NCBI GenBank assembly: GCA_023664045.1
Contig: JAMPGH010000001.1
Coordinates: forward strand, 584,814 to 634,346
Reading direction: 5' to 3'
DNA: 49,533 nucleotides
From: Alistipes senegalensis
GTDB taxonomy: Bacteria > Bacteroidota > Bacteroidia > Bacteroidales > Rikenellaceae
Part shown: positions 26,906 to 49,533 of the stretch, in pieces
Numbering within the stretch: the stretch's first letter is position 1
How the letters are laid out: each line of letters starts with the position of its first letter
Program-made: the position numbers and the translations under genes
Notes under the pieces: generated by a model
Database searches by the model: none
Seen by the model: only the letters and a program-made list of their open reading frames with translations
What the model was told of the DNA's origin: nothing

Positions 26906-29413
26906 CTATCTCGTGCGGATCGTCGTTTCGGCTCCGTCTCCGATGCCTTCCGCCCGCAGTACGGCTTCGCCCCGTTCTCCGCGGCGGGAGCGTACGATGG
27001 CCAACGCCTTGCCCGCAAAGAGGGCTTTGCGGGTGCCGCGCAGCGAGAGCGTGTCGGCCGCATTGCCGTTGTCCACGCCGACCAGTTCGCCCGTGCCCGT
27101 AACTCGGAAGCGGAGTTCCCGATCGGCCGTCGGCACCGGGTTGCCCGCCGCATCTACCGCTTCCACGGTTACGTACGAAAGGTCGTAACCGTCGGCCGCG
27201 ATGCGCCGGCGGTCGGGCGTCAGCCGCAGCGCCACTGGTTCGCCGGCCGTGCGGCGTACGGTCCGATTCTCCGCGCGGCCTGCGCGGTAGCTTATCGCTT
27301 CTATTTCGCCCGCTTCGAAGGGCACCTGTGCCCAGAGGGCATGCAGGCGGTCGGCGCTTTTGGCGCGGAATCCCAGCGAGCGGCCGTTGAGGCGCAGCTC
27401 CACCGAGTCGGCGTTGTTGTAGTAGCACCACATATCGATCCGCTGGCCCGGCGTCCAGTTCCAGTGCGGGAAAAGATGCAGGGTCGGGGTGTCGGTCCAC
27501 TCCGAGCGGTACATGTAGTAGACATCTTTGGGGAATCCGCAGAGGTCTGCGATGCCGAAGTAGGAGGAGCGCGACGGCCACGTGTAGGGCGTCGGTTCGC
27601 CCAGGTAGTCGAATCCCGTCCAGACGAAAGTTCCCGCCAGCCAGTCGCGGTCGCGGATCGCGATCCAGCTCTTTTCATGGTGATCGCCCCACGCTACCCG
27701 GGAGTTGTCGTAGGCCGAGCATTGGTGGTGGGGCGTGTCGTAGATCGTGCGCCAGTCGTCGGGCAGGGGCACCGGCTCGGTCGAGGGGTGGACGTAGAAT
27801 CCGCGGCTCTGCACCGACGACACGGTCTCCGAGCCCAACAGCGGCTTGTCGGGATACCATATGCGCGTCGAGTCGTAGAGCGCCGTGCCGTAGTTGAACC
27901 CGTAGATGTCGAGGGCTCCCGAGCGCAGGAGGTTGTTGCGGGGGCGGAGTTCGTTGCATCCCGCGATCACCGGACGCGTGGGGTCTATCGCCTTGACCAG
28001 CGCCACCATGTGGGCCGTCAGCAGCATGCTGGGATTGACCCCTTCGGCGGTGCCGTGCCGGCGGCGGCTCAGGAAGTTCATCAGCAGGTTGGCTTGTTCG
28101 GCCGGCAGGTCGGCCGGATCGTCGTCCGAGGCGTCCCATTGTTCGATGATCTCGTTGCCCACCGACCACATCACGATCGAGGGGTGGTTGCGGTCGCGGC
28201 GCACGAAATCTTCCACGTCGCGTTCGTGCCACTCGTCGAAGAAGCGCGCATAGTCGTAGCGCGTCTTCGGGCGGCGCCACATGTCCAGCGCTTCGTCCAT
28301 GACCAGCAGCCCCATCTCGTCGCAGAGATCCAGCAGCTCGGGTGCCGGGGGATTGTGCGACGTGCGGATCGCGTTGCAGCCCATTTCGCGCAGGATGCCG
28401 AGTTGGCGTTCCAGCGCACGGCGGTGTACCGCAGCGCCCAAAGCCCCCTGATCGTGGTGCAGACAGACGCCCCGGAGTTTCACGCGGCGGCCGTTCAGGC
28501 GGAATCCCTCGTCGGCCGAGAAGCCGAACGTGCGGATGCCGAAGCGCGTTCGGTAGCGGTCTCTCTCGGCGCCGTCTCGGAGTATGCGGCTCTCCGCCCG
28601 GTAGAGCGCGGGATGTTCCGTGTCCCAAAGACGGGGGGCCGCTACCCGGAGCGTCGCCGCCACCTCCACCGTGTCGCCCGCATTCGCCGCGAAGACCTCC
28701 ACGGCCGTGGCTACCCGGCGGCCGCGGTCGTCGTAAATCCGGTGTTCCAGCCGCGCTTCGGGGATCGCTTCGTTCCCGTCGTTGACGATCCGGGTCGCGA
28801 TGCGCACCGCGGCTTCTTCTTCCGTTACTTCGGGCGTCGTTACATAGGTCCCCGAGTAGAGTATGTGGAGCGGCTCCACCTCCACGAGCCGGACATTGCG
28901 GTAGATGCCGCAGCCGGCATACCAGCGCGAGTTGGGTTGTTCGGCGTTGTCGCAGCGCACGGCGATGACGTTGCGTCCGCCCGCCGGCGCAAGGTGGGGC
29001 GTCAGGTCGTAGCTGAACGACGAGTAGCCGTAGGGCCGCGTGCCGAGGGGCCGGCCGTTGACGTAGACCGTGCTGTTCATGAATACGCCGTCGAACTCCG
29101 CATAAAGCCGGCGGCCCGTTCCCAGCGTCTCGGGCGTCGGAAACTCCTTGCGGTACCAGCCGATGCCGCCCGGGAGGGCTCCGCCGCCGGGCGTCGAGGG
29201 GTTCTCTCTCGAGAAGTCGCCTTCGATGGCCCAGTCGTGGGGCAGATGCAGGGGGCGCCAGCCGCTGTCGTCGTATTCCGGCGCAGCGTATGCCTCCTCG
29301 TCGCCCAGTGCGAAGCGCCATTCGAAGTTGAAATCTTCCGTGCGGCGCACCTCGGGGCTTCCGCAGGCGACCAGCAGGCAGAGCAGGGCCGCAAGAATCG
29401 GCGCGCGTCTCAT
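26906..29413 (-). CDS. Glycoside hydrolase family 2 lipoprotein, probable beta-galactosidase
   Basis: The product has 835 residues from the ATG at 29413, which gives a lipoprotein signal with Cys17 in ALLCLLVAC; an 81-base upstream extension has no signal and is rejected. Domains are the GH2 jelly-roll sugar-binding domain (about 25-180), an immunoglobulin-like domain (about 185-295), a TIM barrel (about 300-600) and C-terminal beta domains. The acid/base is Glu421 in WSVGNEI; Glu529 in LLGSETVSS is the nucleophile. Within the locus the likely job is removal of galactose from xyloglucan side chains, but GH2 also covers glucuronidases and mannosidases. Its ATG overlaps the GH3 stop by four bases. 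Last gene of a GH31-GH3-GH2 operon. Confidence 0.9.
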   Translation of the reverse strand: MRRAPILAALLCLLVACGSPEVRRTEDFNFEWRFALGDEEAYAAPEYDDSGWRPLHLPHDWAIEGDFSRENPSTPGGGALPGGIGWYRKEFPTPETLGTGRRLYAEFDGVFMNSTVYVNGRPLGTRPYGYSSFSYDLTPHLAPAGGRNVIAVRCDNAEQPNSRWYAGCGIYRNVRLVEVEPLHILYSGTYVTTPEVTEEEAAVRIATRIVNDGNEAIPEARLEHRIYDDRGRRVATAVEVFAANAGDTVEVAATLRVAAPRLWDTEHPALYRAESRILRDGAERDRYRTRFGIRTFGFSADEGFRLNGRRVKLRGVCLHHDQGALGAAVHRRALERQLGILREMGCNAIRTSHNPPAPELLDLCDEMGLLVMDEALDMWRRPKTRYDYARFFDEWHERDVEDFVRRDRNHPSIVMWSVGNEIIEQWDASDDDPADLPAEQANLLMNFLSRRRHGTAEGVNPSMLLTAHMVALVKAIDPTRPVIAGCNELRPRNNLLRSGALDIYGFNYGTALYDSTRIWYPDKPLLGSETVSSVQSRGFYVHPSTEPVPLPDDWRTIYDTPHHQCSAYDNSRVAWGDHHEKSWIAIRDRDWLAGTFVWTGFDYLGEPTPYTWPSRSSYFGIADLCGFPKDVYYMYRSEWTDTPTLHLFPHWNWTPGQRIDMWCYYNNADSVELRLNGRSLGFRAKSADRLHALWAQVPFEAGEIEAISYRAGRAENRTVRRTAGEPVALRLTPDRRRIAADGYDLSYVTVEAVDAAGNPVPTADRELRFRVTGTGELVGVDNGNAADTLSLRGTRKALFAGKALAIVRSRRGERGEAVLRAEGIGDGAETTIRTR

Positions 29414-34386: not shown

Positions 34387-34441
34387 TTCGGTTCGGGTTT
34401 TATTATTAAAAATTTTCATAATTTCTGCGTTCCCGTTTTTA

Positions 34442-34480
34442 CAAAAGTAGTCGATTCCCGGTCGACCGAGGGGCCGCAAA
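34442..34480 (-). promoter_or_regulatory. Promoter of the GH31-GH3-GH2 operon
   Basis: The minus-strand -7 box TACTTTTG lies at 34442-34449 and a TTTG at 34477-34480 could be the -33 element, though 27 bases apart, longer than usual. The wide spacing fits an activator-dependent promoter; the 10-base palindrome at 34459-34468 lies in the gap. Confidence 0.55.
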
Positions 34481-34651
34481 TGTTGCCGAAAAGGGTGCCG
34501 CTCGATGTATTTCACCTCGGAATCCGCCTCCGGAGGGCTCCGCGCAGGGCTTCGCTCCGTCGGCCGGGTATTCGAAAAAGTCGGTTGCCGGAAGCCGATT
34601 TTTTTACGAACAGAGACATTCGAATCCTTTATCGGCAACAAACAAGACCCC

Positions 34652-34757: not shown

Positions 34758-37700
34758 ATGGAAAGAAATTTTTCCGCCATGAGAAAGGTGCTCGCAACGC
34801 TGTTCGCAGCGGTTTTCGCGACTATTTCGTGGGGGGGGGAATTGCAGGCCCAACCTCGTGAAATCACCGGAACCGTTACTTCGGAGGCCGCCGAGCCGAT
34901 CGTCGGCGCGGCCGTCGTCGCCGAGGGTACCTCGGTCGGCACCTCGACCGATCTTGACGGCCGTTACCGGCTGACGCTGCCTGCCGGCGCGACCGCCATC
35001 ACGGTCTCCTATCTGGGCTACGATCCCGCGACGGTCGTCGTCGGCAACCGCACGACGGTCGACATCCGGCTCGCCGAGTCGGCTTCGGCGCTCGACGAAG
35101 TGGTCGTCGTCGGCTACGGCGTCCAGAAGAAGAAGCTCACCACGGGCGCCAACCTCAACGTCAAGGGCGACGAGCTCATGAAGCGCAGCACCTCCAGCCC
35201 GCTGCAGGCGCTGCAGGGCCAGACGCCGGGCGTGCAGATCACCTCCACGTCGGGACAGCCGGGCGAGGGGATGAAGGTTACGGTCCGCGGTCTGGGCACC
35301 ACGGGCAGCGCCGGTCCGCTCTACGTCGTCGACGGCATCCCGGGCGACATCACCAAGCTCAACCCCGCCGACATCGAGTCGATCGACATCCTCAAGGACG
35401 CCGCTTCGGCCGCCATCTACGGTTCGCAGGCCGCCAACGGCGTCGTGCTGGTAACCACCAAGAGCGGCAAGAAGGGTTCGGCGCAGGTCTACTACGACGG
35501 TTACTACGGCGTGCAGACCATCTACCGCAAGGCCAGCATGCTCGATGCCTCGCAGTACCGCACCATCATGGACGAGCAGTCGCTCAACTCCGGCGGCACG
35601 CCCTACGACTGGTCTCAGTACAACATGGCCGACACCGACTGGGCCGACCAGATGTTCCGGTCGTCGGCTCCCACGCAGAACCACACCGTCGGCGTCTCGG
35701 GCGGCGGCGAAACGTCGGTCTACGCCTTCTCGTTCAACTACACCGATCAGGAGGGTCTGGCCGGCAGCCGCGAGAAGTCGTCGCTCAAGAGCTACAAGTT
35801 CCGCGTCAATACCGAGCATAAGGTCTACCGCGACATCCTCAAGATCGGCGAGCACTTCACTTTCGTGCATAACGAGCAGGCCGGCATCGGCGTGGGCAAC
35901 CAATATAATAATACGTTGCGCGCTGCGTTCGCCGCTTCGCCGCTGGCCCACGTCTACGGCGGCAACTACTACGGCTGGGGCGACGAGAAGGGTACCTGGA
36001 ACGACTCGGCTTACGAGGGCGAGGGCGGCATCCAGAACCAGTGGAACCCCGAGGACGGCAACCCCTACGCATCGATGATGCTGGGGCGTTCGCTCACCAA
36101 GTCGCAGAACGTCATCGGCGACGTCTACGCCGAGCTGCAGCCCGTCGAGGGGCTGAGAATCCGCTCCACGCTGGGTCTCTCGTTCTACGCCAGCCGCGGC
36201 CACAGCATCGGCTTCCCCTCCAAGTGGGATTCTTTCGGCAGCGCCCCCTCCGAGGAGGAGCACTACTACGCCAGCGTCTCGCAGAGCCAGTCCAACGGCT
36301 ACTCCCTCTCGTGGATCAACACCGCGCAGTACGACTTCACCGTCCGCGACGACCACAACCTTTCGTTCATGATCGGTTCCGAGTGGGACACCAACGAGGG
36401 CGAGTGGATCAGCGGCTCGAACAAGATCTCCGTCGAGCAGTTCAAGGACTTCCGGCACGCTTGGCTCGACAACGGCGTCGACGTCAGCACCTTCTGGGGC
36501 AAGCCCTCGGGCAACGTCAACGACGTCGACCGCACGATGTCGCTCTTCGCGCGCGCAGGTTATAATTATAAGGAGAAGTACATGGTCAACGTAACGTTCC
36601 GCGCCGACGCTTCTTCGAAATTCGCCAAGGGCAACCGCTGGGGTTACTTCCCCTCGGTTTCGGCCGGCTGGGTGCTCACCGAGGAGAAGTGGGCCCGCAA
36701 CAGCCGGTGGCTCGACTTCTTCAAGCTCCGCGGTTCGTGGGGTCAGGTCGGCAACAAGAACATCGGCAATTACATGTACACCGCGCCGATCTCCACTTCG
36801 AACCACGGTTATAACTTCGGTACGGGCCTCGGCTCGGCGGCCGAGCAGCTGGGTTCGATCCAGACGCGTCTGGCCAACCTCGACATCAAGTGGGAGACTT
36901 CCGAGCAGCTCGACTTCGGCTTCGACGCCCGCTTGTTCGGCAATCGCCTCGACGTGAACTTCGACTGGTACCGCAAGACGACGCGCGACTGGCTCGTCGA
37001 GGCTCCCATCATCGCCACCACCGGTACCGGCGCTCCTTATATCAACGGCGGCGACGTGAAGAACACCGGCGTCGAGCTCGCCCTCAACTGGCACGCTTCG
37101 GCCGGCCGCGACTTCCACTACTACGTCGGCGTGAACGGCGCCTACAACAAGAACCGCGTGGGCCGCATTCCCAACACCGACGGCATCATCCACGGTCCCG
37201 ACAACCAGATCTACCAGAACGCGCCCGAGTTCTACCGCGCGCAGGACGGCCACGCCATCGGTTACTGGTGGGGTCTGCAGACCGCGGGCGTCTTCCAGAA
37301 CCAGCAGCAGATCGACGAGTGGCGCGCCGCCGGCAACGGCATCTATCAGGCCGACGTGCAGCCGGGCGACGCGATCTTCGTCGATCAGGACCATAACGGC
37401 ATCATCGACGAGAACGACCGCGTGGATCTGGGCAACGGCATGCCCGACTTCACCTACGGCTTCTCGCTGGGCTTCGACTGGAAGGGCCTCGACTTCAATG
37501 TTACCGCCTACGGCTCGGCAGGCGTCGATCTGGTGCAGTCGTACCGCAATCCCAATGCGCAGCGCGCCAACTATACCACGGCGATCCTCGGTCGCTGGAC
37601 GGGCGAGGGCACCTCGAACCGCATTCCGCGCGTAACCAACAACGGCACCAACTACCAGCCTTTCTCCGACCTCTACATTCAGGACGGCGACTTCCTGCGC

Positions 37701-37925
37701 ATTTCGAACATCACTGTGGGCTACGACTTCGCCCGCCTGATCGACAAGTCGTGGATGTCGCAGCTGCGGCTCTACTTCTCCGTGCAGAACGCCTTCACCT
37801 TCACCGAGTACGACGGCATGGATCCCGAGATCGGCTACGGTACTTCGGACTGGTGCTCGGGCGTCGACGTGGGTTACTATCCCCACCCGCGCACCTACCT
37901 CGTGGGCCTGAATATCAAGTTCTAA
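34758..37925 (+). CDS. SusC/RagA family TonB-linked outer membrane transporter
   Basis: This is the outer-membrane importer of the locus, 1055 residues. After the signal peptide (start MERNFSAMRKVLATLFAAVF; alternative Met at residue 8) comes a carboxypeptidase-regulatory-like domain (about 35-115, ITGTVTSEA), the junction SALDEVVVVGYGVQKKKLTTGA, the plug (about 120-235), and a 22-stranded barrel ending in YLVGLNIKF. SusC forms a lidded pore with the SusD gene product encoded next. The start is in front of a G9 tract at codons 25-28, which makes this gene a candidate for frameshift switching. No TonB box variants were examined. Confidence 0.95.
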   Translation: MERNFSAMRKVLATLFAAVFATISWGGELQAQPREITGTVTSEAAEPIVGAAVVAEGTSVGTSTDLDGRYRLTLPAGATAITVSYLGYDPATVVVGNRTTVDIRLAESASALDEVVVVGYGVQKKKLTTGANLNVKGDELMKRSTSSPLQALQGQTPGVQITSTSGQPGEGMKVTVRGLGTTGSAGPLYVVDGIPGDITKLNPADIESIDILKDAASAAIYGSQAANGVVLVTTKSGKKGSAQVYYDGYYGVQTIYRKASMLDASQYRTIMDEQSLNSGGTPYDWSQYNMADTDWADQMFRSSAPTQNHTVGVSGGGETSVYAFSFNYTDQEGLAGSREKSSLKSYKFRVNTEHKVYRDILKIGEHFTFVHNEQAGIGVGNQYNNTLRAAFAASPLAHVYGGNYYGWGDEKGTWNDSAYEGEGGIQNQWNPEDGNPYASMMLGRSLTKSQNVIGDVYAELQPVEGLRIRSTLGLSFYASRGHSIGFPSKWDSFGSAPSEEEHYYASVSQSQSNGYSLSWINTAQYDFTVRDDHNLSFMIGSEWDTNEGEWISGSNKISVEQFKDFRHAWLDNGVDVSTFWGKPSGNVNDVDRTMSLFARAGYNYKEKYMVNVTFRADASSKFAKGNRWGYFPSVSAGWVLTEEKWARNSRWLDFFKLRGSWGQVGNKNIGNYMYTAPISTSNHGYNFGTGLGSAAEQLGSIQTRLANLDIKWETSEQLDFGFDARLFGNRLDVNFDWYRKTTRDWLVEAPIIATTGTGAPYINGGDVKNTGVELALNWHASAGRDFHYYVGVNGAYNKNRVGRIPNTDGIIHGPDNQIYQNAPEFYRAQDGHAIGYWWGLQTAGVFQNQQQIDEWRAAGNGIYQADVQPGDAIFVDQDHNGIIDENDRVDLGNGMPDFTYGFSLGFDWKGLDFNVTAYGSAGVDLVQSYRNPNAQRANYTTAILGRWTGEGTSNRIPRVTNNGTNYQPFSDLYIQDGDFLRISNITVGYDFARLIDKSWMSQLRLYFSVQNAFTFTEYDGMDPEIGYGTSDWCSGVDVGYYPHPRTYLVGLNIKF
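34831..34839 (+). repeat. G9 homopolymer inside the susC signal-peptide region
   Basis: Nine consecutive G at codons 25-28 (Trp-Gly-Gly-Glu), inside the signal peptide of susC. Gain or loss of one base would shift the frame near the start of the protein. Confidence 0.9.
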
Positions 37926-37946: not shown

Positions 37947-39653
37947 ATGAATGCAACGATAAAATATCTGTCGGCGATTCTTCTCGCAGGAGCCGTCTCC
38001 TGTTCGCTCGATACCGAGTCGATGTCGAGCATCGACAGCGGCACCTATTACAAGACGATGGCCGATGCCGAGGCGGCGCGCGTCGGTTGCTACGACGGCT
38101 ACCGCCGCATCTCGGCCGAGAACGCCCTGTCGTTCACGCTGGCTTCGGAGGTCATGGGCGACGACTGCTTCGGCGGCGCCGGCATGGGCGACGCCCGCAA
38201 CTACCAGATGCTCGACCGCTTCGACATCGCGCAGGCTCCCGGCTCGGTCAACGAGTTCAACGACCTGTGGCGCCTCTCCTACAACGCGATCTTCAACTGC
38301 AATACGTTGCTCGCCAACCTCGGGAACATCGAGTGGAAGGCCGACGCGTCGCGTGGCTGCGAAACTCCCGAGGCCACCCGCGACGCCTACGAGGGCGAGG
38401 CGCGTTTCTTGCGCGCCGTGGTCTACTTCGACCTCGTGCGGTTGTTCGAGCGCGTGCCTCTGCTGACCGTCCCCACGAAGGAGGTCGTCGCGCAGGCCGC
38501 TCCCGAGGAGACCTACGCATTGATCATCGCCGACCTCAAGTTCGCAATGGAGCATATCCCCTACGTGCCCACTCCCGCTTGGCATAAGAGCTTCGACGGT
38601 ACGGCTACCGCCGATGCCGCCGCCGCCCTGCTGGGCCGCGTCTACCTCTTCTATACGGGTTACTACGGCAAGGAGCACGAGGCCCTCACGAAGGCCGAGG
38701 CCGTCGAGGCGCTGGAGTTCGTCGTCGAGCGCGGCAACTACGGCCTCGTCCAGAAGGGCGACGACGATGCCAACGGCTTCACGCGCCTGTGGCGCGCCGC
38801 CATCGCCACCGACGCCGGTGCCGGCAAGGGGCTCGACAACCACTCGTGGGTGGGCCGCGCCTGCGAATACGCCGAGACCAACGAGTTCATCTTCACCCAG
38901 AAGTTCAACTTCCTCTCCAACTACAACGGCAACGCCTCGGGCAACCGGTGGTTGGTGATGGTGGGTCTCCGCAACATCGACCACGTGCAGGCCGTGCCTT
39001 ACGGCAAGGGCTGGGGCATCATGACCGTCAGCCCCGACGCCAAGCGCGTCTTCGAGGCCGCCGACCCGCGTCTCAAGGCCACGATCATCGACTTCGCGTC
39101 GGAGGGCCGCACGGGCGTAACCGATCAGGTCGTTTCGTTGGGCGACTGGCGCGAGTTCACAGGGTATAACTTCAAGAAGTACATCCCCCTCTCTTGCAAC
39201 GTCGACGGCAAGGCCGTCGCCGAGGTCTCCGGTTCCGATTTCGCCGAGGGCGAGCAGGATTTCCAGATCTCGCAGTATCAGGACGTCGTCATCATGCGTT
39301 ACGCCGACGTGCTGCTCATGCTCTCCGAGCTGAAGGAGGACGCCTCCTACATGAATCTGGTCCGCCAGCGCGCCGGCATGGGCGACCTGGCCTATTCGAA
39401 GGAGAACATCCTCGCGGAGCGTCATCGCGAGCTCATGGGCGAGGGCGTCCGTTACTGGGACCTGCTGCGTCAGGGCGTGGAGTACGCCGCCGAGACGATC
39501 GCCGGTTCGTGGACCGTCCAGAGCGGCAACGTCGACGACCGGATCGTCATTTCGAAGGAGAACATCCTCTCCAAGCGGGGTCTGTGCCGCATTCCCGAGA
39601 GCCAGATCGTGGCCGCGAACGGCGTCTATACGCAGAACCCGGGATGGAACTAA
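37947..39653 (+). CDS. SusD/RagB family outer-membrane lipoprotein
   Basis: The 568-residue protein carries a lipoprotein signal with Cys19 (LLAGAVSC). The N-terminal SusD-like part has the helical TPR scaffold (SYNAIFNCNTLLANL, EARFLRAVVYFDLVRLFERV), and the C-terminal part carries RHRELMGEGVRYWDLLRQG, the usual signature before the ending with IPESQI. SusD sits on the cell surface as the lid of SusC and binds the glycan. It begins 21 bases after susC. Full length, with no sign of damage. Confidence 0.94.
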   Translation: MNATIKYLSAILLAGAVSCSLDTESMSSIDSGTYYKTMADAEAARVGCYDGYRRISAENALSFTLASEVMGDDCFGGAGMGDARNYQMLDRFDIAQAPGSVNEFNDLWRLSYNAIFNCNTLLANLGNIEWKADASRGCETPEATRDAYEGEARFLRAVVYFDLVRLFERVPLLTVPTKEVVAQAAPEETYALIIADLKFAMEHIPYVPTPAWHKSFDGTATADAAAALLGRVYLFYTGYYGKEHEALTKAEAVEALEFVVERGNYGLVQKGDDDANGFTRLWRAAIATDAGAGKGLDNHSWVGRACEYAETNEFIFTQKFNFLSNYNGNASGNRWLVMVGLRNIDHVQAVPYGKGWGIMTVSPDAKRVFEAADPRLKATIIDFASEGRTGVTDQVVSLGDWREFTGYNFKKYIPLSCNVDGKAVAEVSGSDFAEGEQDFQISQYQDVVIMRYADVLLMLSELKEDASYMNLVRQRAGMGDLAYSKENILAERHRELMGEGVRYWDLLRQGVEYAAETIAGSWTVQSGNVDDRIVISKENILSKRGLCRIPESQIVAANGVYTQNPGWN

Positions 39654-39677: not shown

Positions 39678-41957
39678 ATGAAAAAGATATTTCGACTGTT
39701 TCTGTCGGCTGCGGCGGGCTTCGTCTTGGGAGCCTGCACGCCCGATGCGCCCGAACTCCCGGAGATGACTTTCTCGGCGGAGGATCTCGTCATGGGCGAA
39801 GCCTATACGATCACGCAGGACGCCGACGATCCCAATACCGTCTACCTCGCCAGCTTGCTCAAGGGCGTAACTCCCTTGTGGGAGTACCCCGGCGGGCGGT
39901 CCCAGAAGTCGGAGGTGAAGCTGCAGATCGCCTTCAAGGGGCAGTATACCTTCCGGTTCGGCGTGATGACTCCCGGCGGCTACGTCTACGGCGAGCCTTA
40001 CGTGCTGGACCTTACGACCGACAACTTCGCCTACGTCGAGAACGAGTTGTGGACCTGCCTCTCGGGCGGCCGCGGCAAATCGAAAACGTGGGTGCTCGAC
40101 CTCGACGCCGAGGGCAACACCACCTACTTCAAGGGTCCCAAGTGGTTCTTCGCCAACGGCTATACGTGGGACGCCGTGCATAAGGCCGACGGCTCCTGCT
40201 ACCTCGACATGAGCGACTACGCCGCCGCAGGTTACGCCGAGTGCATCGCGCCTTACATCGTCGACGGCGCTTCGGCTTGGTACTGGGCCGCCGACTGGGC
40301 CGGCAACTCCTGGATGTGCGGGGCCGCCGACTACGGTACGATGACTTTCGACCTCATCGACGGCGCCAACTGCACGGTGGTCGACGCCAACGGCAACGAG
40401 ATCAAGGGTTCCTACATCCTCGACGCCGATTCGCATACGATCGCTTTCACCGACGTGGTGATGCTCAACCCCGACGGCATGACGGCCAACCCCGCCAGCT
40501 TGCGGCTGATCGCGCTGGACGACTACCGCCTGCAGATCGCCGCCGTGCCCGATCCTCCCTATACGGCTCCCGACGATCCTTCGATGACCGTCTACAACTT
40601 CGTTACGAAGGAGTACTTCGACAACCCGCCCGCTCCCGAGGAGCCTAAGGAGCCCGAGCTCCCGGAGGGTTGGAAGGATATCGTCGGCCAGATCACGCAG
40701 ACGGCCATCAAGTGGACGCTCTCGACCGAGAATCCGCTCGACTGGTGCACTCTCTCGGGCGGCCGCATGAACGGCTGGAACTCCCCGTCCGACTATCCCG
40801 ACTGGCTCGGCACGCCCGATCCGGCCGTCTACGGCGACTTCTCGCTCACGATGGACAGCTCCACGGGCGCTTACGTGGCTGTCGCTCCCGACGGCAGCGA
40901 GACCGCCGGCAGCTACTCGCTCGACGACAAGGGCGTCTACAAGTTCGACAACGGGCTGCCTTCGTTCACGCTCATCGGGTGGGCTTCGTTCGCCACGACG
41001 GACGACAACGAGTTGCGCATCATGTCGATCGAGACCGCCGGCAGCGGCACCATCCGCGGCATGTGGCTCGGCGCTAAGGCGGCCGATAAGGACGAGTATA
41101 CGGCCTACCACCTCATCGCCAACGTCGGCAGCGGCGATTCGGCCGAAGGGGAATCGGGTTACGACGCTTCGATCTACTTCACCAATTCGTCGTGGTGGCC
41201 TTCGGGCAACGGCGCGGTCGTGAAGATCACCGGCGACGGCACCTATACTTGCGAATTCGCCGTCGAGCAGCAGGTTACCGACGCTATGGTGTTCACCGTG
41301 GACATCGCCGGCCTGCGCAAGGACCATCCCGCTGCGGGCGCTGCGGTCAAGGCCGTTCGTTGCGACGGGCAGGAGATCGCTTTCGATGCCGCGAAAGTCG
41401 CTTACGGCGATCTGGAGGGCAACGGCAATCTGCGTCTCGAACTGGCGAATGCCTTCGGCCCGACCAGTGGCGATCCGGCCGTCGCCGCCGTCGACTTCTC
41501 GCAGAAGATCGAGGTCGATTTCGAGGTGAAGTTCGAGGCTTACGAGGCTCAGATCATGATTACCAACAGCGGTTGGTGGCCGTCCTACAGCGGTGCCACG
41601 CAGGCCGGCGTTCTGGGTGTGGGCAAGTATCTGATCGGGCTCGAGGAGATGGGCGATGCCATCACCGCACCGATGATCTTCTGCATCGACGTGCTGGGTT
41701 ATCCCGACGCGGCGACCGCCAAGTGCGGCATCCACTCCATCGAGGTCAACGGCGAGAAAGTTACGGTCAAGGCCGGGAACCTCGCCTACGGCGACCTCGA
41801 AAAGAAAGGCAATCTGCGTTGGGAGTTCTTCAACATCTACGGCGATACTAAGGGTTCTTCGACCGACAGTGCGTTGGACTATAGCCAGTCGGTGATCGAC
41901 GGCAGCGAGTTCACCGAGGTGAAGAGTCTCAAGATCCTCGTATCGATCGACGAATAA
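39678..41957 (+). CDS. Surface glycan-binding-type lipoprotein with duplicated domains
   Basis: This 759-residue lipoprotein (Cys20, GFVLGAC) stands where xyloglucan loci encode a surface glycan-binding protein. An N-terminal Ig-like domain (about 22-115) is followed by two copies of one unit (A: about 125-315 and 345-485) and two copies of another (B: about 495-620 and 622-756). A copies share WTCLSGGR / WCTLSGGR, GSYILD / GSYSLD and DDYRLQI / DDNELRIM. B copies share FTNSSWWPS / ITNSGWWPS, AMVFTVDIAG / PMIFCIDVLG and AYGDLE followed by GNLR. The many tryptophans fit sugar binding. I recognise no catalytic residues. Binding of the substrate is inferred from position; the family is not one I can name. 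Confidence 0.72.
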   Translation: MKKIFRLFLSAAAGFVLGACTPDAPELPEMTFSAEDLVMGEAYTITQDADDPNTVYLASLLKGVTPLWEYPGGRSQKSEVKLQIAFKGQYTFRFGVMTPGGYVYGEPYVLDLTTDNFAYVENELWTCLSGGRGKSKTWVLDLDAEGNTTYFKGPKWFFANGYTWDAVHKADGSCYLDMSDYAAAGYAECIAPYIVDGASAWYWAADWAGNSWMCGAADYGTMTFDLIDGANCTVVDANGNEIKGSYILDADSHTIAFTDVVMLNPDGMTANPASLRLIALDDYRLQIAAVPDPPYTAPDDPSMTVYNFVTKEYFDNPPAPEEPKEPELPEGWKDIVGQITQTAIKWTLSTENPLDWCTLSGGRMNGWNSPSDYPDWLGTPDPAVYGDFSLTMDSSTGAYVAVAPDGSETAGSYSLDDKGVYKFDNGLPSFTLIGWASFATTDDNELRIMSIETAGSGTIRGMWLGAKAADKDEYTAYHLIANVGSGDSAEGESGYDASIYFTNSSWWPSGNGAVVKITGDGTYTCEFAVEQQVTDAMVFTVDIAGLRKDHPAAGAAVKAVRCDGQEIAFDAAKVAYGDLEGNGNLRLELANAFGPTSGDPAVAAVDFSQKIEVDFEVKFEAYEAQIMITNSGWWPSYSGATQAGVLGVGKYLIGLEEMGDAITAPMIFCIDVLGYPDAATAKCGIHSIEVNGEKVTVKAGNLAYGDLEKKGNLRWEFFNIYGDTKGSSTDSALDYSQSVIDGSEFTEVKSLKILVSIDE

Positions 41958-42000: not shown

Positions 42001-42020
42001 TTCTTCATACACTTCCTTCC

Positions 42021-43529
42021 ATGAAAAAAATCATCTCTCTTCTCTGCGCCTTCGCCATGCTCGCTTCGGCTGCGGCTTGCTCCGACAGCGATCCCGGCGG
42101 CGATCCCGTCCCCGGCGGCAAGGAGTACGAGCTCAGCCTCTCGCCCGCCGCGTTCGCCGAGGTTCCGGCCGAGGGCTCGGGCGACGCACCTCTCGTGCTG
42201 ACCCTCCGCACCACCGCTCCTTCTTGGAGCGTCGTCCGGGCCGAGGACAACGACTGGGCCTTGCCCAATATCTCCGTGGGATTGGCCGGCGAGCATGCCG
42301 TTCGCATCTCCGTGGCGGCGAATGGGGGCGAAGCCCGTTCGACCTCCTTCACGGTCCGGGCCACCGGGTGCGACGACCTCGCTTTCTCCGTCTTGCAGGC
42401 CGGGGCCGAGATCCCTCCCGCGCCCGTTTTCGACGATCCCGATGCGATGCCCGACCGCATCGAGGCCGATGCCTCGGGCATGGAGTCCGACGCCATGACG
42501 TTGGCCGCCAAGATGACGGCCGGCATCAACATCGGCAATACGTTGGAGGCTTGCGACAACAAGGGCAGCGCCGACATGACCGTGTGGAGCGGCAGCGAAA
42601 CGACGTGGGGCAACCCGCAGATCACGCAGACGCTCATCGACGGTTACAAGGCCGCCGGCTTCGACGCCGTGCGCATCCCCGTCGCATGGGTCTGCGGCCA
42701 TATCTCCGACTTCGAAACTTGGAAGATCGACCTCGCGTGGCTGGCCCGCGTGCGGGAGGTCGTCGATTATTGCCGCACCGCCGACATGTACGTCCTCATC
42801 AACATCCATTGGGACGGGGGCTGGCTCGAGAACAACCCCACCTACGCCCGGCAGGAGGAGGTCAACGCCATGCAGCGGCGGCTGTGGACGCAGATCGCCA
42901 AGTACTTCCGCGACTACGACGAGCACCTGCTCTTCGCCGGCACCAACGAGGTGCATGCCGATTACGGCACGCCCACCGACGAGCACATCGCCGTGCAGCA
43001 GTCGTTCAACCAGACTTTCGTCGACGCCGTGCGCGACACGGGCGGCCGCAACGCCTTCCGCGTGCTCGTTACGCAGACCTACAACACCAACATCTGGTTA
43101 GGGGCTCAGAAGCACGTCATGTCCCGGGATCGGGTCGAGGGCCGGCAGATGCTTGAGGTGCATTGCTACGATCCGTGGAGCTTCTGCGGCGACGACCCCT
43201 CCGCTTCGACGTGGGGTTCCGACGCCGAGATCGAGACGCTGCGTTCGCAGTTCACGCAGCTGGGGTCGTTCTACGACGCCGGCATTCCTTTCATCCTCGG
43301 CGAGTACGGCGCTCTCTACCAACCCGCGCTCAAAAACCGCGAGGGCTACATGGCGAGCCGTTGCAAGTGGATCTTCCACGCCACGAAGTTCGCCGTCGAG
43401 AACGGTTACGTGCCTTTCGTGTGGGATACCGGCTCCGACGTCATGAACCGCTCCACGGGTACGCCCCACGAGATCCAGCAGCCGTACCTCGACGCCCTGA
43501 TGCGGGGCGCCCGCGGCGAGGCCTATTGA
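42021..43529 (+). CDS. GH5 endo-glucanase with BACON domain, probable endo-xyloglucanase
   Basis: The 502-residue lipoprotein (Cys20, ASAAAC) has an N-terminal BACON domain (about 35-127) and a GH5 barrel (about 155-495). The acid/base is Glu310 in FAGTNEVH and the nucleophile Glu428 in FILGEYGAL; the TAGINIGNTLEA and RIPVAW segments are those of GH5 subfamily 4 type. BACON-GH5 is the architecture of the vanguard endo-xyloglucanase BoGH5A, which sits on the outer surface and cuts the backbone. Other beta-glucanase activities are possible. It starts just after a terminator-like hairpin. Confidence 0.9.
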   Translation: MKKIISLLCAFAMLASAAACSDSDPGGDPVPGGKEYELSLSPAAFAEVPAEGSGDAPLVLTLRTTAPSWSVVRAEDNDWALPNISVGLAGEHAVRISVAANGGEARSTSFTVRATGCDDLAFSVLQAGAEIPPAPVFDDPDAMPDRIEADASGMESDAMTLAAKMTAGINIGNTLEACDNKGSADMTVWSGSETTWGNPQITQTLIDGYKAAGFDAVRIPVAWVCGHISDFETWKIDLAWLARVREVVDYCRTADMYVLINIHWDGGWLENNPTYARQEEVNAMQRRLWTQIAKYFRDYDEHLLFAGTNEVHADYGTPTDEHIAVQQSFNQTFVDAVRDTGGRNAFRVLVTQTYNTNIWLGAQKHVMSRDRVEGRQMLEVHCYDPWSFCGDDPSASTWGSDAEIETLRSQFTQLGSFYDAGIPFILGEYGALYQPALKNREGYMASRCKWIFHATKFAVENGYVPFVWDTGSDVMNRSTGTPHEIQQPYLDALMRGARGEAY

Positions 43530-43640: not shown

Positions 43641-46600
43641 ATGAAACGGCTGCTGTTCTCTTGTTGCCTCCTTTGCTTCGCGCTCTGTTGCCGGCCTCTG
43701 GCCGCCGCTCCCGCTCCCGGAGGGGGCACCTACCTCTTCGACCATATCGAGACTCCCAACATGTGGATCAACTCGATCTTCCAGGACGACGACGGCTTCA
43801 TCTGGCTCGCCACGCGCAGCGGCTTGTTCCGCGATCTGGACGGCTACATGCTCGAGCAGAAGAGCGTCTTCGCCGGCAGCCACATCGACAAGGTCATGCA
43901 GGACGGCGCGGGGCGCCTCTGGCTGCGGCGCCGGCACGACGTTGTGGCCTACGACACGATGTCCGACCGGGAGCTCGACGAGCGGCAGGTCGCCGAGTTG
44001 CTCGGGGCCCGCGATCCCGTGGCCATGCTCTACGTCGACGGAAAGAGAAACCTCTGGTGGATCGACGACGGCGCCTTGTGGTTCCGGGCGGAGGGTTCTT
44101 CCCGCAACCGGCTCGTCGAGCGGAGCGCCGCCGCGGCCGGCATCACCGACATGTACGACTCCGGGCGCATGCTCCACGCCTTGTGCCCCGACGGGCGGGT
44201 CTTGCGCTACGTCGTCGACGGCTGCGAGGTCTCGGCCGCCGAGCCCCTCGCCGCACCGCCCGCCGCGGACGACGAGCCTTTCTACCTCGTCTTCGTCGAC
44301 TCGGCCGGCAACGTCTGGCTTTCGCAGCGTACCCGCGGCGTGTGGACCTACTTCCCGGCCCGCGGCCGCTACGAGCACTTCAGCGACTCTTCGCCCGCGC
44401 GGCATATCCCGCGGGGTTTCATCTGCAGCATCATCGAGGACGCCACGGGCGCCGTCTGGATGGCTTCCGACCACGGGGGCATCTGCATCTGGCGCGCCGG
44501 CGCTCCGATGACCTACCTCGAAAACATCCCCTCCGACCCCTCGTCGCTGGCCGGCAACAGCGTCTTTTCGCTCTACCGCGACCGCGACGACAACATCTGG
44601 GTCGGGTATACCAAAAACGGCGTGTCGGTCTGGCGGGGACAGAACCGCCGCTACTCGCTGCTGCACCTGCAGTCGTTCTACGGCCGCAACTTCAACGACG
44701 ACATCAACGCCACGTGCGAGGACCGCGAGGGCAACCTCTGGTTCGGCACCGACGGCAACGGGGTGGTCCGCCTCGACCGGTCGGGCCGCGAGACGCTCTT
44801 CACCGCCGGCCCGGGTCCCCGCCGGCTGCACAGCAACATCATCACGGCGCTCCATTGCGACGCCGTCGGGCGGGTGTGGATCGGCACCTTCTACGGGGGC
44901 CTCTCTTGTTATCGCGACGGACGGCTCACGACCTATGTCCATAGCGACGCTTCGGAGGGCCTGGCCTCCGCCGACGTGTGGAGCATCGACAGCGACCGCG
45001 CCGGCAACATCTGGATCGGCACGCTGGGCGGGGGATTGCAGCGGCTCGATCCGCTCTCCGGGCGCTTCACGACCTATACCGCCGCAAACTGCGGACTGGC
45101 CAACGACTACATCCTGCAGATCGACTGTTGCGACGACGGCAGCATCGCGCTGGCCACGGCCTACGGGCTCTCGCTCTTCGATCCCGTCGCCGGGCGCGCC
45201 GCCACCGTCCTCCCCGAACGCAACGGCACACCCATCGACAACCCCGTCTTGTCGGACGTCCGTTTCGATTCCGACGGGGGCGTGTGGTTCGTCTGCGAGG
45301 GGCGCGCCGGCATGTACGACCGCTCCTCGGGCAAGCTGCACGACTTGCCGGAGGTCGACACCTCCAACGTCCAGAGCATCGTCCTCGGCGACGACGGCAC
45401 CGTGTGGATCATCGCCTCCGATTGTCTGTGCGGCGTCCGCCGCGTCGGCACCGATACCGGGGGCTCTCCCCGCTTCGCTACGCGCACCTACCGCTTCTCG
45501 AACGCCGCGGGCGTGCGTTTCAACCAGCGTTCCGCCTGCCGCACGGCCGACGGAGGCATCCTCGCCGGCACCTTCAACGGCTACATGCGCTTCATGCCCG
45601 GCTCGGTCGAGGGCCGCAGCGCCGGCGGGTCCCAGCGCCTCTACTTCACCGGCATTCAGGTCAACGGCACCTCCGTCCGTCCCGGCGAGCGGCTCGACGG
45701 CCGCACGATCCTCGACCGGGCCGTGGAGCACACTTCCGAAATCGTCCTCCGCCACCATCAGAACCGGCTCTCCGTCGACTTCGCGGCGCTGGGTTACTCC
45801 TCCGCGTTCCGGCGCGAGCTGCGTTACCGCATGGAGGGCATCTCCGACGAGTGGATCCCCGTCGACAACCTCTCCACGCGGCTCACCTTCTTCAACCTCC
45901 GGCCCGGGCGCTATCGGCTGACGCTCGAAACGCTCCCTTCGGGCGACTGCGCCGGGGCTTCCGCTTCGCTGGCCGTCGTCGTGCGCCGTCCGTGGTACTT
46001 CTCCACGGTCGCCGGCCTCTCCTATTTCGGCCTCGCAGCTTTCGTCTGCCTGATCGCCGTCGCGATCTTCCGCCGGCGCCGGGCCCGCAGCCTCGAGGCG
46101 ATGGAGCTGGCCATGCGGCGCGAGCAGCAGCACTACGTCGACCAGATGAAGATCCAGTTCTTCACCAACGTCAGCCACGACTTCCGCACGCCGCTCACGC
46201 TCATCATCTCGCCCCTCGAGGAGTTGTTGCGCAGCCGGCCGGAGGTCCGGAACGACATGACCGTCAGCACGGTCTACCGCAATGCGCAGCGTTTGTTGAC
46301 GCTCGTCAACCAGTTGCTCGACTTGCGCAAACTGGAGGTCTGCGGCATCGCGCTGCACCTCGCGCCCGCCGATTTGGCGACCCTCGTGCGGGAGGTGTGC
46401 GCTTCGTTCGGGCTCATGTTGCAGCACGCCGGCATCGCCTTCGACGTCGAGATTCCCGACGGGGAGTGGTGCGTCGACCTCGACCGCGACAAGGTTACCA
46501 AGATCCTCACCAACTTGCTCTCCAACGCCTTGAAGTTCACTCCGCGCGGGGGGTGCATCCGCGTCTCGGTCTCCCGGGAGGAGGATTTCTTGCGCGTGAG

Positions 46601-47678
46601 CGTCGCCGACAGCGGCTGCGGCATCCCCGACAGCGACAAGCGGCGGATCTTCGAGCGTTTCTATCAGGCCAGCGACGGCGCCGCGAGCGGCAGCGGCATC
46701 GGCCTGCATATCGCCCGCGAGTTCACCGTCATGCACGGGGGCGGGATCCGCGTCGAGGACAACGAGCCGCAGGGTTCGGTCTTTTCGTTCACGTTGCCCG
46801 TGCGGCGGACCCTCGCGGCGGAGGCGGACGACGCCGACGATCGGGCGAGCGCCCTGAGCGTTCCGGCTTCGGCCGACGAGACGGGGCAGCGGCCCCTGTT
46901 GTTGATCGTCGACGACAACGACGAGTTCCGCCACTTCATGCGGGCGTCGCTCTGCGCCGACTACGGGATCATCGAGGCGGCCGACGGCGCCGAGGCCTTG
47001 CGGCGGGTGGGGGAGGAGCCCGTCGACATCGTGGTCTGCGACGTCATGATGCCCGTCATGGACGGCGTGGAGTTCTGCCGGCGCATGAAGTCCGACATCA
47101 ACGTCTCGCACATCCCCGTCATCTTGCTCACGGCCCGCTCCATGCAGGAGGACGAGTGCTCGGGGCTCGAATCGGGCGCCGACGACTACATCACCAAACC
47201 TTTCAACATGTCGATCCTGCGGCTGCGCATCGCCCGTTTTCTGGAGTGGAAGCAGCGGGCCCACCGCCTCTTCGACCGGCAGATCGACATCGCCCCCGAC
47301 CAGATCACCCTCACCTCCCTCGACGACCGGCTCTTGCAGGCCGCCATCGAGGCCGTGAACGACAACATCGGCAACCCCGACTTCTCGGTCGCCGACCTCT
47401 CGACGATGCTGCACATGCACCGTACGCACCTCTACAAAAAATTGCTTTTCATCACCGGCAAGGCTCCGCTGGAGTTCATCCGGGCCCTTCGGCTCAAGCG
47501 GGCCGCGCAGTTGCTCGAAACCGGACAGACCTACATCGCCGAGGTGGCCTACATGGTGGGTTTCAACTCGCCGAAGCTCTTCGCCCGCCACTTCCGCGAC
47601 GAATTCGGGTGTTCGCCTTCGGAGTACCAGCGCCGCCATGCCGCCGGACGATCGCAAAACCGCACCGACGAACCATGA
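43641..47678 (+). CDS. Hybrid two-component system sensor/regulator (HTCS)
   Basis: One 1345-residue protein combines sensor and regulator. A signal peptide (about 1-24) is followed by a periplasmic two-component-type beta-propeller (about 28-700, with repeated IWLATRSGLF, NLWFGTDGNGV, IWIGTLGGGL motifs), a Y_Y_Y domain (about 705-785) and a transmembrane helix (about 788-810). The histidine kinase follows (His846 in NVSHDFRTPLTL, ATPase to about 1055), then a receiver domain (acidic pair at 1091-1092 and phospho-acceptor Asp1134 in VCDVMMP), and an AraC-type DNA-binding domain (about 1250-1335). It should sense an oligosaccharide of the substrate and switch on the locus. Its stop overlaps the GH95 start by ATGA. 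Confidence 0.95.
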   Translation: MKRLLFSCCLLCFALCCRPLAAAPAPGGGTYLFDHIETPNMWINSIFQDDDGFIWLATRSGLFRDLDGYMLEQKSVFAGSHIDKVMQDGAGRLWLRRRHDVVAYDTMSDRELDERQVAELLGARDPVAMLYVDGKRNLWWIDDGALWFRAEGSSRNRLVERSAAAAGITDMYDSGRMLHALCPDGRVLRYVVDGCEVSAAEPLAAPPAADDEPFYLVFVDSAGNVWLSQRTRGVWTYFPARGRYEHFSDSSPARHIPRGFICSIIEDATGAVWMASDHGGICIWRAGAPMTYLENIPSDPSSLAGNSVFSLYRDRDDNIWVGYTKNGVSVWRGQNRRYSLLHLQSFYGRNFNDDINATCEDREGNLWFGTDGNGVVRLDRSGRETLFTAGPGPRRLHSNIITALHCDAVGRVWIGTFYGGLSCYRDGRLTTYVHSDASEGLASADVWSIDSDRAGNIWIGTLGGGLQRLDPLSGRFTTYTAANCGLANDYILQIDCCDDGSIALATAYGLSLFDPVAGRAATVLPERNGTPIDNPVLSDVRFDSDGGVWFVCEGRAGMYDRSSGKLHDLPEVDTSNVQSIVLGDDGTVWIIASDCLCGVRRVGTDTGGSPRFATRTYRFSNAAGVRFNQRSACRTADGGILAGTFNGYMRFMPGSVEGRSAGGSQRLYFTGIQVNGTSVRPGERLDGRTILDRAVEHTSEIVLRHHQNRLSVDFAALGYSSAFRRELRYRMEGISDEWIPVDNLSTRLTFFNLRPGRYRLTLETLPSGDCAGASASLAVVVRRPWYFSTVAGLSYFGLAAFVCLIAVAIFRRRRARSLEAMELAMRREQQHYVDQMKIQFFTNVSHDFRTPLTLIISPLEELLRSRPEVRNDMTVSTVYRNAQRLLTLVNQLLDLRKLEVCGIALHLAPADLATLVREVCASFGLMLQHAGIAFDVEIPDGEWCVDLDRDKVTKILTNLLSNALKFTPRGGCIRVSVSREEDFLRVSVADSGCGIPDSDKRRIFERFYQASDGAASGSGIGLHIAREFTVMHGGGIRVEDNEPQGSVFSFTLPVRRTLAAEADDADDRASALSVPASADETGQRPLLLIVDDNDEFRHFMRASLCADYGIIEAADGAEALRRVGEEPVDIVVCDVMMPVMDGVEFCRRMKSDINVSHIPVILLTARSMQEDECSGLESGADDYITKPFNMSILRLRIARFLEWKQRAHRLFDRQIDIAPDQITLTSLDDRLLQAAIEAVNDNIGNPDFSVADLSTMLHMHRTHLYKKLLFITGKAPLEFIRALRLKRAAQLLETGQTYIAEVAYMVGFNSPKLFARHFRDEFGCSPSEYQRRHAAGRSQNRTDEP

Positions 47679-49533
47679 AACTTTCCGCCTTCTTCGCCGC
47701 AGGAGTGGCACTGATCTCCGCCGCCTGCTCCGCTTCCGTCGACCGCCGTTCCGACGACAACCTCGTGTTGCGCTACGACCGCCCCGCCGCCATCTGGGAG
47801 GAGACCCTTCCGCTCGGCAACGGACGACTGGGCGCCATGCCTTACGGACGACCCGCCGCCGAGCGCATCGTCCTCAACGAGGAGTCCATGTGGAGCGGTT
47901 CGCGCCAGCAGACCGACAACCCCGAGGCCGCCCGGTGGCTTCCCGAGATCCGGCGCCTCTTGCTCGAGGGGCGCAACGCCGAGGCGCAGCAGCTGATGTA
48001 CCGCCGCTTCACCTGCCGCGGCGGCGGGGGTTCTTCCCCGGCATTCGGGTCTTACCAGACACTGGGAATGTTGGAGCTCGATTTCGAGCTCGACAGTACG
48101 CGGGTCTCCGATTATTCGCGGCGGTTGTCGTTGCACGAGGCCGTCGCATCGACCGAGTTCGTCGCCGACGGCTCGCACTATAGCTACGAATATTTCGTCT
48201 CGTTGGCCGACGACGTGGTCGCCGTCTCCCTCTCTTCCGACGGCGCGCCGCTCGACTTCGCCGTCGCTCTTTCGCGGCCCGAACGGGCCGTCTCCACGGC
48301 CGACTCCCGACGCCTCCGCATGCAGGGCACGCTCGACAGCGGCACCCCCGGCGTCGACGGGGTACGCTACCTCGCCGAACTGCGCGTCCTCACCGACGGA
48401 GAGGTCTTGGCCGACGGCGGGCGGCTCCGCGTCTCGGGCTCCGACCGCGCCCTGCTGCTCCTCACCGCCGCCACCGATTACAATACCCCCGACCTCGGGG
48501 CCCGCACCGCCGCGATCCTCGACGCCGCGGCCGCCATTCCTTATTTCGAGCTGCGCCACCGGCATACGTACGCCCACCGCCGTCTCTTCGACCGCGTGGC
48601 GATCGACCTCGGCCCGGCGCCCGCGGCACTCTCCACCGACCGCCGCATCGAGCGCTTCGGCGAGGGCGGGGACCCGGCGCTGGCGGCGCTCTATTTGCAG
48701 TACGGCCGCTACTTGCTCATCGCTTCGACCGCACAGGGTACGCTCCCGCCCAACTTGCAGGGGCTCTGGGCCGACAGGTGCGTCTGCCCGTGGAACGGCG
48801 ATTACCACCTCAACATCAACGTGCAGATGAACCACTGGCCGCTCGAACCGGGCAACCTTCCGGAGCTCGCCGGGCCGCTCACCCGTTACGTCGAGTCGCT
48901 CGTCTCGTCGGGCGAACGTTCCGCGCGGGTCTTCTACGACGCGCCGGGGTGGTGCGCCCACGTGCTGGCCAACGTCTGGCAGTTCACTTCGCCGGCCGAG
49001 GATCCCGCGTGGGGCGCCACCAATACCGGGGGCGCATGGCTGGCCCTGCACCTCTGGGAGCACTACCTCTATACGCTCGACCGCGACTACCTGCGGCGCG
49101 TCTATCCCGTCTTGCGGGGCGCCGCCGAGTTCCTGCAGGCGCTGCTCGTCGAGGAGCCGTCTCACGGCTGGCTCGTAACGGCCCCCACCACCTCGCCCGA
49201 GAACGGATTCTACCTGCCCGACGACCCCGGGCACGTCGTCTACGTCTGCATGGGTTCGGCTATGGATACCCAGATCGTCCGCGAGGTGTTCGGCGCCGTG
49301 TCGGCCGCTGCCTCGGTGCTCGACATCGACCGGGAGTTCGCCGCCCGCCTCGACCGGACGTGCGCCAAGTTGCCGCCGATGCAGGTCTCCCGCGAGGGTT
49401 ATCTCATGGAGTGGTTGGAGGATTACCAGGAGATGGATTCGCACCACCGCCACGTCTCGCACCTCTTCGGCCTCTACCCGGCCGCGCAGATCACGCGCCG
49501 CACGCCCGAGCTGCTCGACGCCTGCCGCCGCAC
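47675..49533 (+). CDS. GH95 alpha-L-fucosidase or alpha-L-galactosidase, cut by window end
   Basis: A 619-residue portion is present; the frame runs off the right edge, so roughly the last 150-200 residues are missing. A lipoprotein signal with Cys18 (LISAAC) is followed by the N-terminal beta domain (RYDRPAAIWEETLPLGNGRLGAM) and the alpha/alpha-barrel. The paired asparagines of the active site are seen in NGDYHLNINVQMNHWP and the catalytic glutamate in TTSPENGF. The third catalytic residue, an aspartate near the end of the family, lies outside the window. GH95 cuts alpha-1,2-fucosyl (or alpha-L-galactosyl) ends, as in fucosylated xyloglucan. Its start overlaps the HTCS stop, so the two are translated together. 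Confidence 0.9.
   Translation, partial: MKLSAFFAAGVALISAACSASVDRRSDDNLVLRYDRPAAIWEETLPLGNGRLGAMPYGRPAAERIVLNEESMWSGSRQQTDNPEAARWLPEIRRLLLEGRNAEAQQLMYRRFTCRGGGGSSPAFGSYQTLGMLELDFELDSTRVSDYSRRLSLHEAVASTEFVADGSHYSYEYFVSLADDVVAVSLSSDGAPLDFAVALSRPERAVSTADSRRLRMQGTLDSGTPGVDGVRYLAELRVLTDGEVLADGGRLRVSGSDRALLLLTAATDYNTPDLGARTAAILDAAAAIPYFELRHRHTYAHRRLFDRVAIDLGPAPAALSTDRRIERFGEGGDPALAALYLQYGRYLLIASTAQGTLPPNLQGLWADRCVCPWNGDYHLNINVQMNHWPLEPGNLPELAGPLTRYVESLVSSGERSARVFYDAPGWCAHVLANVWQFTSPAEDPAWGATNTGGAWLALHLWEHYLYTLDRDYLRRVYPVLRGAAEFLQALLVEEPSHGWLVTAPTTSPENGFYLPDDPGHVVYVCMGSAMDTQIVREVFGAVSAAASVLDIDREFAARLDRTCAKLPPMQVSREGYLMEWLEDYQEMDSHHRHVSHLFGLYPAAQITRRTPELLDACRR

What the first reader, a model, noticed from the sequence alone, without database searches (positions are those of the whole stretch)
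26906..49533. Polysaccharide locus that fits fucogalacto-xyloglucan, in a probable Alistipes relative
GH2, GH3, GH31 with PA14 insert, SusC, SusD, a surface binder, BACON-GH5, HTCS and GH95 together cover every link of dicot xyloglucan: backbone, xylose, galactose and fucose. No GH43 arabinofuranosidase and no GH9 is seen, so the arabinosylated form looks less likely as target. Genes beyond the right edge could change this. The two arms are arranged divergently, unlike the single-direction locus I know from B. ovatus.
Basis: partly seen in the sequence, partly recalled or inferred. Interest (0 to 1): 0.75.

Follow-up and report, generated by a model that had tools for sequence, protein, structure and literature searches.

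The report
Xyloglucan-eating gene cluster in gut bacterium
A bacterium probably of the Alistipes family carries a known type of gene cluster for eating xyloglucan, a plant cell wall polymer; the parts are ordinary, but few related species have it and they may have passed it between them.

Summary
Window 26906-49533 encodes GH2, GH3 and GH31 on one strand and SusC, SusD, a surface binder, GH5, HTCS and GH95 on the other. GH31 is nearest to the B. ovatus xyloglucan alpha-xylosidase (1169 bits) and GH5 to BoGH5A (273 bits). It is a xyloglucan utilization locus, a known kind. Divergent arms are not rare: 5 of 16 other loci with a visible SusC show them.

Corrections: a 100-N gap cuts GH95, so what follows is unknown. 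In congener G092 a BoGH43A-type GH43 follows GH95, so arabinosylated xyloglucan is not excluded. RelA is nearest to a named Rikenellaceae genome; Alistipes is plausible, not shown.

New here: of 180 held genomes of the genus, own included, 8 have this GH31: four in a SusC/SusD locus (G009 cut by contig ends, G092 a variant), four in a GH31-GH3 pair. Sites differ between G000 and G168. G009 and G168 loci are 84-94% identical, their core proteins 71-83%; this suggests transfer, though gene trees mostly do not settle it.

The parts
26906..29413 (-). GH2 beta-galactosidase-like lipoprotein; start codon overlaps the GH3 stop (ATGA)
   Evidence: Pfam GH2 domains; NCBIfam GalB and GalA best, both under cut-off; PDB best 7cwd 680 bits; overlap read
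29410..31596 (-). GH3 beta-glucosidase-like
   Evidence: Pfam; PDB best 8va7 816 bits, BoGH3B only 158 bits; 60% to GH3 of the B. fluxus locus L052
31621..34410 (-). GH31 alpha-xylosidase with PA14-like insert
   Evidence: Pfam; PDB best 5jou BoGH31A 1169 bits
34411..34757 (.). divergent promoter region: TACTTTTG 34442-34449 (-) and TAATTTTG 34672-34679 (+); conserved block ATCGGCAACAAAC 34631-34643, a weak candidate for a regulator site
   Evidence: elements in both directions also in G009, G168 and G092
34758..37925 (+). SusC-type TonB-dependent transporter
   Evidence: TIGR04056 887 bits, over cut-off; Pfam
37947..39653 (+). SusD-type lipoprotein
   Evidence: PF07980, PF14322; PDB SusD homologues
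39678..41957 (+). surface glycan-binding protein (SGBP) candidate, lipoprotein
42021..43529 (+). GH5 endo-xyloglucanase-like lipoprotein with divergent BACON-like domain
   Evidence: PDB best 3zmr (BoGH5A) 273 bits; E310 and E428 invariant in 9 aligned GH5 (that they are the catalytic pair is recalled)
43641..47678 (+). hybrid two-component system regulator (HTCS)
   Evidence: Reg_prop, Y_Y_Y, HisKA, HATPase, receiver, AraC HTH
47675..49533 (+). GH95 alpha-L-fucosidase-like, C-terminus lost in a scaffold gap; start overlaps HTCS stop (ATGA)
   Evidence: Pfam GH95; PDB best 7kmq (XacAfc95) 424 bits; gap; overlap
26169..26741 (+). efp (elongation factor P), left neighbour of the island; not part of it
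   Evidence: TIGR00038 214 bits, over cut-off; DNA similarity to congeners ends near 26742

Best explanation
The region is a xyloglucan utilization locus of the known Bacteroidota kind, built as two divergent operons. The HTCS senses xyloglucan fragments and turns on both arms (inferred). The GH5 lipoprotein cuts the backbone at the surface; SGBP, SusD and SusC bind and import the oligosaccharides; GH95 removes fucose, GH2 galactose, GH31 xylose, and GH3 splits the glucan (families shown, activities and places in the cell inferred). Xylose is then used through xylA and a xylulokinase elsewhere in the genome (genes shown, use inferred). The locus is an accessory island placed beside efp, held by few species of the genus.
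For: GH31 and GH5 nearest to xyloglucan enzymes. GH95 nearest to XacAfc95 and 50% to the GH95 of the B. fluxus YIT 12057 locus L052; PMC10154630 lists BfGH95 of that strain as active on XXFG and XLFG (passage; that it is the same gene was not checked). SusC, SusD and HTCS present. Around the GH31 of the best 80 of at least 580 named relatives, GH95 is seen in 14 of 80 within the fetched stretches (counted by eye). TAnnTTTG elements face both ways between GH31 and SusC in 4 of 4 loci, the -7 consensus quoted in PMC7366714 (passage). xylA over cut-off and a xylulokinase-like gene under cut-off in the genome; in congener G092 xylB, xylA and xylE stand beside GH31. Island borders.
Against: No enzyme was assayed. 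GH95 is incomplete, and XacAfc95 leads the alpha-L-galactosidase 4ufc by only 18 bits. GH2 and GH3 are placed at family level; GH3 is not of BoGH3B type. The SGBP is known only by place and a partial fold match. The GH5 of G092 is only 35% identical to that of the window although SusC there is 72%.
Confidence: 0.88

Rival explanations
1. The locus serves a broader xyloglucan range, including arabinosylated forms, with a GH43 arabinofuranosidase hidden in the scaffold gap after GH95.
For: The gap begins inside GH95. In G092, GH43 follows GH95 and is nearest to BoGH43A, 673 bits. In G168 another GH43 stands about 1.3 kb from GH2. No close copy of the G092 GH43 was found among the four GH43 places of G000 (best 35%).
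Against: In G168 the gene found after GH95 is a GH88-DUF2264 gene, not GH43. In the G000 scaffold xseA follows the gap. G000 has four GH43 matches elsewhere that could serve instead.
Confidence: 0.3
2. The true substrate is another beta-glucan or a xylan-type glycan (for example mixed-linkage glucan, or a GH95 acting on L-galactose).
For: GH5 enzymes of this group vary in specificity (recalled); 4ufc scores close to XacAfc95; the SGBP model resembles a B. fluxus protein solved with laminaritriose and mixed-linkage glucotriose.
Against: GH31 gives 1169 bits to BoGH31A and is nearest to alpha-xylosidases; GH31, GH2 and GH95 stand at one locus.
Confidence: 0.07
3. The odd relation of the G009, G168 and G000 loci comes from binning error, or from an old locus lost in most species, and not from gene transfer.
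For: G009 and G168 are fragmented (390 and 260 contigs); the G009 contig holds only locus genes. The eight GH31 of the genus form one clade (97/95), as an old locus would. Most locus-gene trees do not reject G000+G009.
Against: In G168 the locus shares a contig with rnc, which is 72% to G000 as RelA is. Third-position GC of the locus differs between G009 (0.75-0.80) and G168 (0.81-0.86). G009-G168 locus identity exceeds core identity, and the sites differ between G000 and G168.
Confidence: 0.3

Closest known systems
B. ovatus XyGUL (BoGH5A, BoGH31, BoGH3A/B, BoGH43A/B; PMC4967831, passages)
   Same: GH5, GH31 and GH3 kinds; GH31 and GH5 are the nearest solved relatives. GH2, SusC/SusD, SGBP and HTCS in both (B. 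ovatus side recalled)
   Different: No GH43 or GH9 seen here, GH95 present, the one GH3 not of BoGH3B type, arms divergent (single direction and GH9 in B. ovatus are recalled)
B. fluxus YIT 12057 locus (L052) and related GH95-bearing XyGULs (Dejean 2019, not held; BfGH95 data seen in PMC10154630)
   Same: SGBP, GH5, HTCS, GH31, GH2, GH3 and GH95 in one place; identities 35-60%
   Different: These seven run in one direction in the stretch held of L052, which does not reach SusC or SusD; GH95 follows GH3 instead of HTCS
Dysgonomonas mossii DSM 22836 locus (L060)
   Same: Two opposite arms; SusC 55%, GH5 50%, GH31 56%
   Different: GH31 runs with SusC; HTCS and GH95 run the other way
Xanthomonas XyGUL (PMC8245568, passages)
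   Same: XacXyl31 and XacAfc95 are close relatives of GH31 and GH95
   Different: GH74 and GH35 in place of GH5 and GH2; absence of SusD is recalled

Membership tests
XyGUL of Bacteroidota | GH5 (subfamily 4) endo-xyloglucanase | tested here: met
   best of 53 solved matches is 3zmr, BoGH5A; the subfamily itself was not scored and activity not tested
XyGUL of Bacteroidota | PA14-bearing GH31 alpha-xylosidase | tested here: met
   1169 bits to 5jou over residues 147-1016 of the longest reading; PA14 under Pfam cut-off
XyGUL of Bacteroidota | SusC/SusD pair | tested here: met
XyGUL of Bacteroidota | surface glycan-binding protein after SusD | tested here: inconclusive
   homologues in other loci; structural match covers the N-terminal part only
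XyGUL of Bacteroidota | HTCS regulator | tested here: met
XyGUL of Bacteroidota | side-chain galactosidase (GH2) and GH3 beta-glucosidase | tested here: met
   family level only
XyGUL of Bacteroidota | growth on or hydrolysis of xyloglucan | not testable with these tools
   needs bench work
GH95 alpha-1,2-L-fucosidase | general base Asn pair and general acid Asp (N397/N399 and D690 of XacAfc95) | tested here: inconclusive
   NIN motif present; the stretch with the acid lies past the gap start; the G168 orthologue is open to its stop and holds QIDGNFG (that this Asp is the acid is recalled)
Rikenellaceae | core gene nearest to that family | tested here: met
   RelA 61% to the L050 genome (uncultured Rikenellaceae), at most 49% to the other 14 genomes behind named records; one gene, one record of the family
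Alistipes | genus identity | not testable with these tools
   genus names are not shown; 180 genomes held, 1.0 to 3.8 Mb among the 30 listed

The most novel reading that the evidence does not exclude
The xyloglucan locus is a mobile accessory island in a Rikenellaceae genus. It has moved as a block between distant species into different sites. Other species of the genus keep only a GH31-GH3 pair and could live on trimmed fragments (isoprimeverose and XXXG-type pieces) left by the full users. The full user in the window removes fucose but shows no FGGY fuculokinase, so fucose may be left to others.
Probability: 0.4. Interest if true: 0.5.

Novelty: new member of a known kind. Interest (0 to 1): 0.35.

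Why it matters
Xyloglucan loci are described in Bacteroides, Dysgonomonas and Segatella and outside the phylum (passages). This adds a Rikenellaceae genus and a small comparative set: 4 loci with SusC/SusD and 4 lone GH31-GH3 pairs among 180 genomes, own included. That set can test transfer of whole polysaccharide loci and sharing of breakdown products within one genus.

Tried and rejected
Rejected: divergent layout as a novelty. Many stretches are cut by contig ends.

Not accepted as the whole cause: contamination for G168, because rnc shares its contig. For G009 it stays possible.

Weak: trees of locus genes. With G000+G009 tested as one clade, only HTCS rejects it (p-AU 0.011); GH31+SusC+SusD+SGBP together 0.219, SusC 0.085, SusD 0.462, SGBP 0.221, GH5 0.172; GH31 alone joins G000+G009 at 76/81 in this set of 6 rows, while in the GH31 tree of 33 rows G009+G168 join at 89/73. 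The case for transfer rests on distances, sites and the core tree, not on these topologies.

Weak: the block ATCGGCAACAAAC as regulator site. It is conserved in the promoter alignment, but a second exact copy lies at 11616 and 5 of 100 shuffles give as many matches.

G092 GH31 was reported with one stop; the stop is at codon 6 of the stretch I read and an open frame of 927 codons starts after it, so the gene is not broken.

Literature: searches listed no paper whose title or shown start of abstract describes a xyloglucan locus in Alistipes or Rikenellaceae. Some lists were cut (20 of 25, 15 of 2,647, 15 of 89). Only listings were read, except passages of PMC10154630, PMC11784079, PMC4967831, PMC8245568, PMC5816542, PMC8002723 and PMC7366714. 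PMC6805095 (Dejean 2019), PMC4282169 and PMC4850273 are not held.

Not done: phylogeny against characterised CAZy enzymes; a search for fucose isomerase; a fold of the C-terminal half of the SGBP by itself.

Full report
Check of the observation. On the minus strand lie GH31 (31621-34410), GH3 (29410-31596) and GH2 (26906-29413); on the plus strand SusC, SusD, an SGBP candidate, GH5, an HTCS and GH95. The GH3-GH2 and HTCS-GH95 pairs overlap by ATGA. BACON and PA14 fall under the Pfam cut-offs, but the alignments to 3zmr and 5jou pass through those regions.

What the right edge is. The window is one piece of a scaffold. The bases just after it are 100 N (L009 4348-4447), and the left edge also adjoins 100 N (L232 9715-9814). 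GH95 runs into the gap: the family model stops at position 333 of 408. Beyond the gap come the N-terminal part of xseA, a reading without a Pfam family, a TonB-like gene (under cut-off), pfkB and a phosphofructokinase gene, all on the minus strand.

Expression. The 347 bases between GH31 and SusC hold one TAnnTTTG element in each direction. The window holds 13 such elements against 4.9 expected. G009 and G092 each have one element per direction in the same interval; G168 has one towards SusC and two towards GH31.

Host. RelA of the window is 61% identical to that of the genome behind L050, named uncultured Rikenellaceae, and at most 49% to the other 14 genomes behind named records. The genus is not named by the tools. 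xylA is present over its cut-off. One FGGY kinase was found in G000, best matched by xylulokinase though under that model's cut-off. The genome is 86% complete, so a missing fuculokinase is only suggested.

Spread in the genus. All 180 held genomes of the genus, own included, were searched with GH31 (E up to 1e-130): 10 match, of which 8 are near full-length at 69-100% identity and 2 are partial at 44%. G000 and G168 show all nine genes, G168 on two contigs with GH5 split between them and G000 with GH95 cut. G009 shows eight, GH2 and HTCS cut by the contig ends and GH95 out of view. G092 shows seven, without GH2 and GH3. G020, G024, G027 and G034 have GH31 and GH3 side by side with none of the other window genes in the 36 to 60 kb examined. 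GH5 was searched in 151 of these genomes; the four pair-only genomes gave no catalytic-domain match (N-terminal matches in G020, G024 and G034, none in G027). The eight GH31 form one clade (97/95) in a tree of 33 rows, in which G092 groups with the pair-only species (99/97) and not with G000, G009 and G168.

The island. In G000 similarity to congeners stops near 26742, at the end of efp. In G007 and G151, which gave no GH31 match at that threshold, xseA and efp are about 4.3 kb apart with other genes between, and pfkB, the TonB-like gene and xseA keep the G000 order. This supports the scaffold join and marks the locus as an insertion or replacement. In G168 the locus lies beside genes for GH43, GH28, a heparinase II/III-like protein, GH97, RNase III and a ketoacyl synthase. 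In G092 it lies 6.6 kb from pfkB, with GH43 and a second SusC/SusD pair between.

Transfer. Identities: G000-G009 core 92, 96, 100% (RelA, PfkB, PFK) and locus 74-90% (8 genes); G009-G168 core 71, 83, 82% and locus 84-94% (8 genes); G000-G168 core 72, 82, 82% and locus 74-90% (9 genes). The core tree of 12 species puts G009 with G000 (99/98), and G168 outside all others but G092; G009+G168 as a clade is rejected on it (p-AU 1e-38). Locus-gene trees are nearly stars and mostly do not settle the order. Binning error remains possible for G009; for G168 it is unlikely, because rnc on the same contig is 72% to G000. One GH31 clade for the genus also fits an old locus with many losses, so transfer is likely rather than shown.

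A variant. In G092 the GH31 arm carries xylB, xylA, xylE and a SASA-type esterase instead of GH3 and GH2, and GH95 is followed by a GH43 nearest to BoGH43A (673 bits). Its GH5 is only 35% identical to that of the window. Side-chain enzymes thus vary inside the genus while SusC (72%) and GH31 (69%) stay.

Verdict. The reading is right in substance and the kind is known. The host lineage, the patchy spread, the differing sites and the lone GH31-GH3 pairs are the parts worth following.

Noticed in passing
G020:C5:242468-245230, G024:C15:70580-73357, G027:C1:9471-12230, G034:C8:94678-97416 (L016, L013, L014, L015): GH31 with GH3 beside it stand as a pair, without SusC/SusD, GH5, GH2 or GH95 relatives in the stretches examined; neighbours look like housekeeping genes by eye.
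   Followed up: partly
G092:C39 (L153-L155): A XyGUL variant with xylB, xylA, xylE and a SASA esterase in the GH31 arm, BoGH43A-type GH43 and a second SusC/SusD pair after GH95.
   Followed up: partly
L045 and L046: GH31 72% and 67% identical to the window's, although RelA of these genomes is only 45% and 44%: possible transfer of GH31 beyond the family.
   Followed up: no
window 20377-22584 and G000:C1:86914-88983: Two RelA/SpoT homologues in one genome, 39% identical over the aligned part.
   Followed up: no
window 4405-5637: A papain-like (C1) peptidase reading whose two Pfam matches cover only residues 48-129 and 336-408 of 410.
   Followed up: no
window 1-49533, both edges: The window is bounded by 100-N scaffold gaps on both sides.
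   Followed up: yes
window about 26758-26800: A G+C-rich inverted repeat flanked by A and T runs between efp and GH2, like a two-way terminator (read by eye).
   Followed up: no
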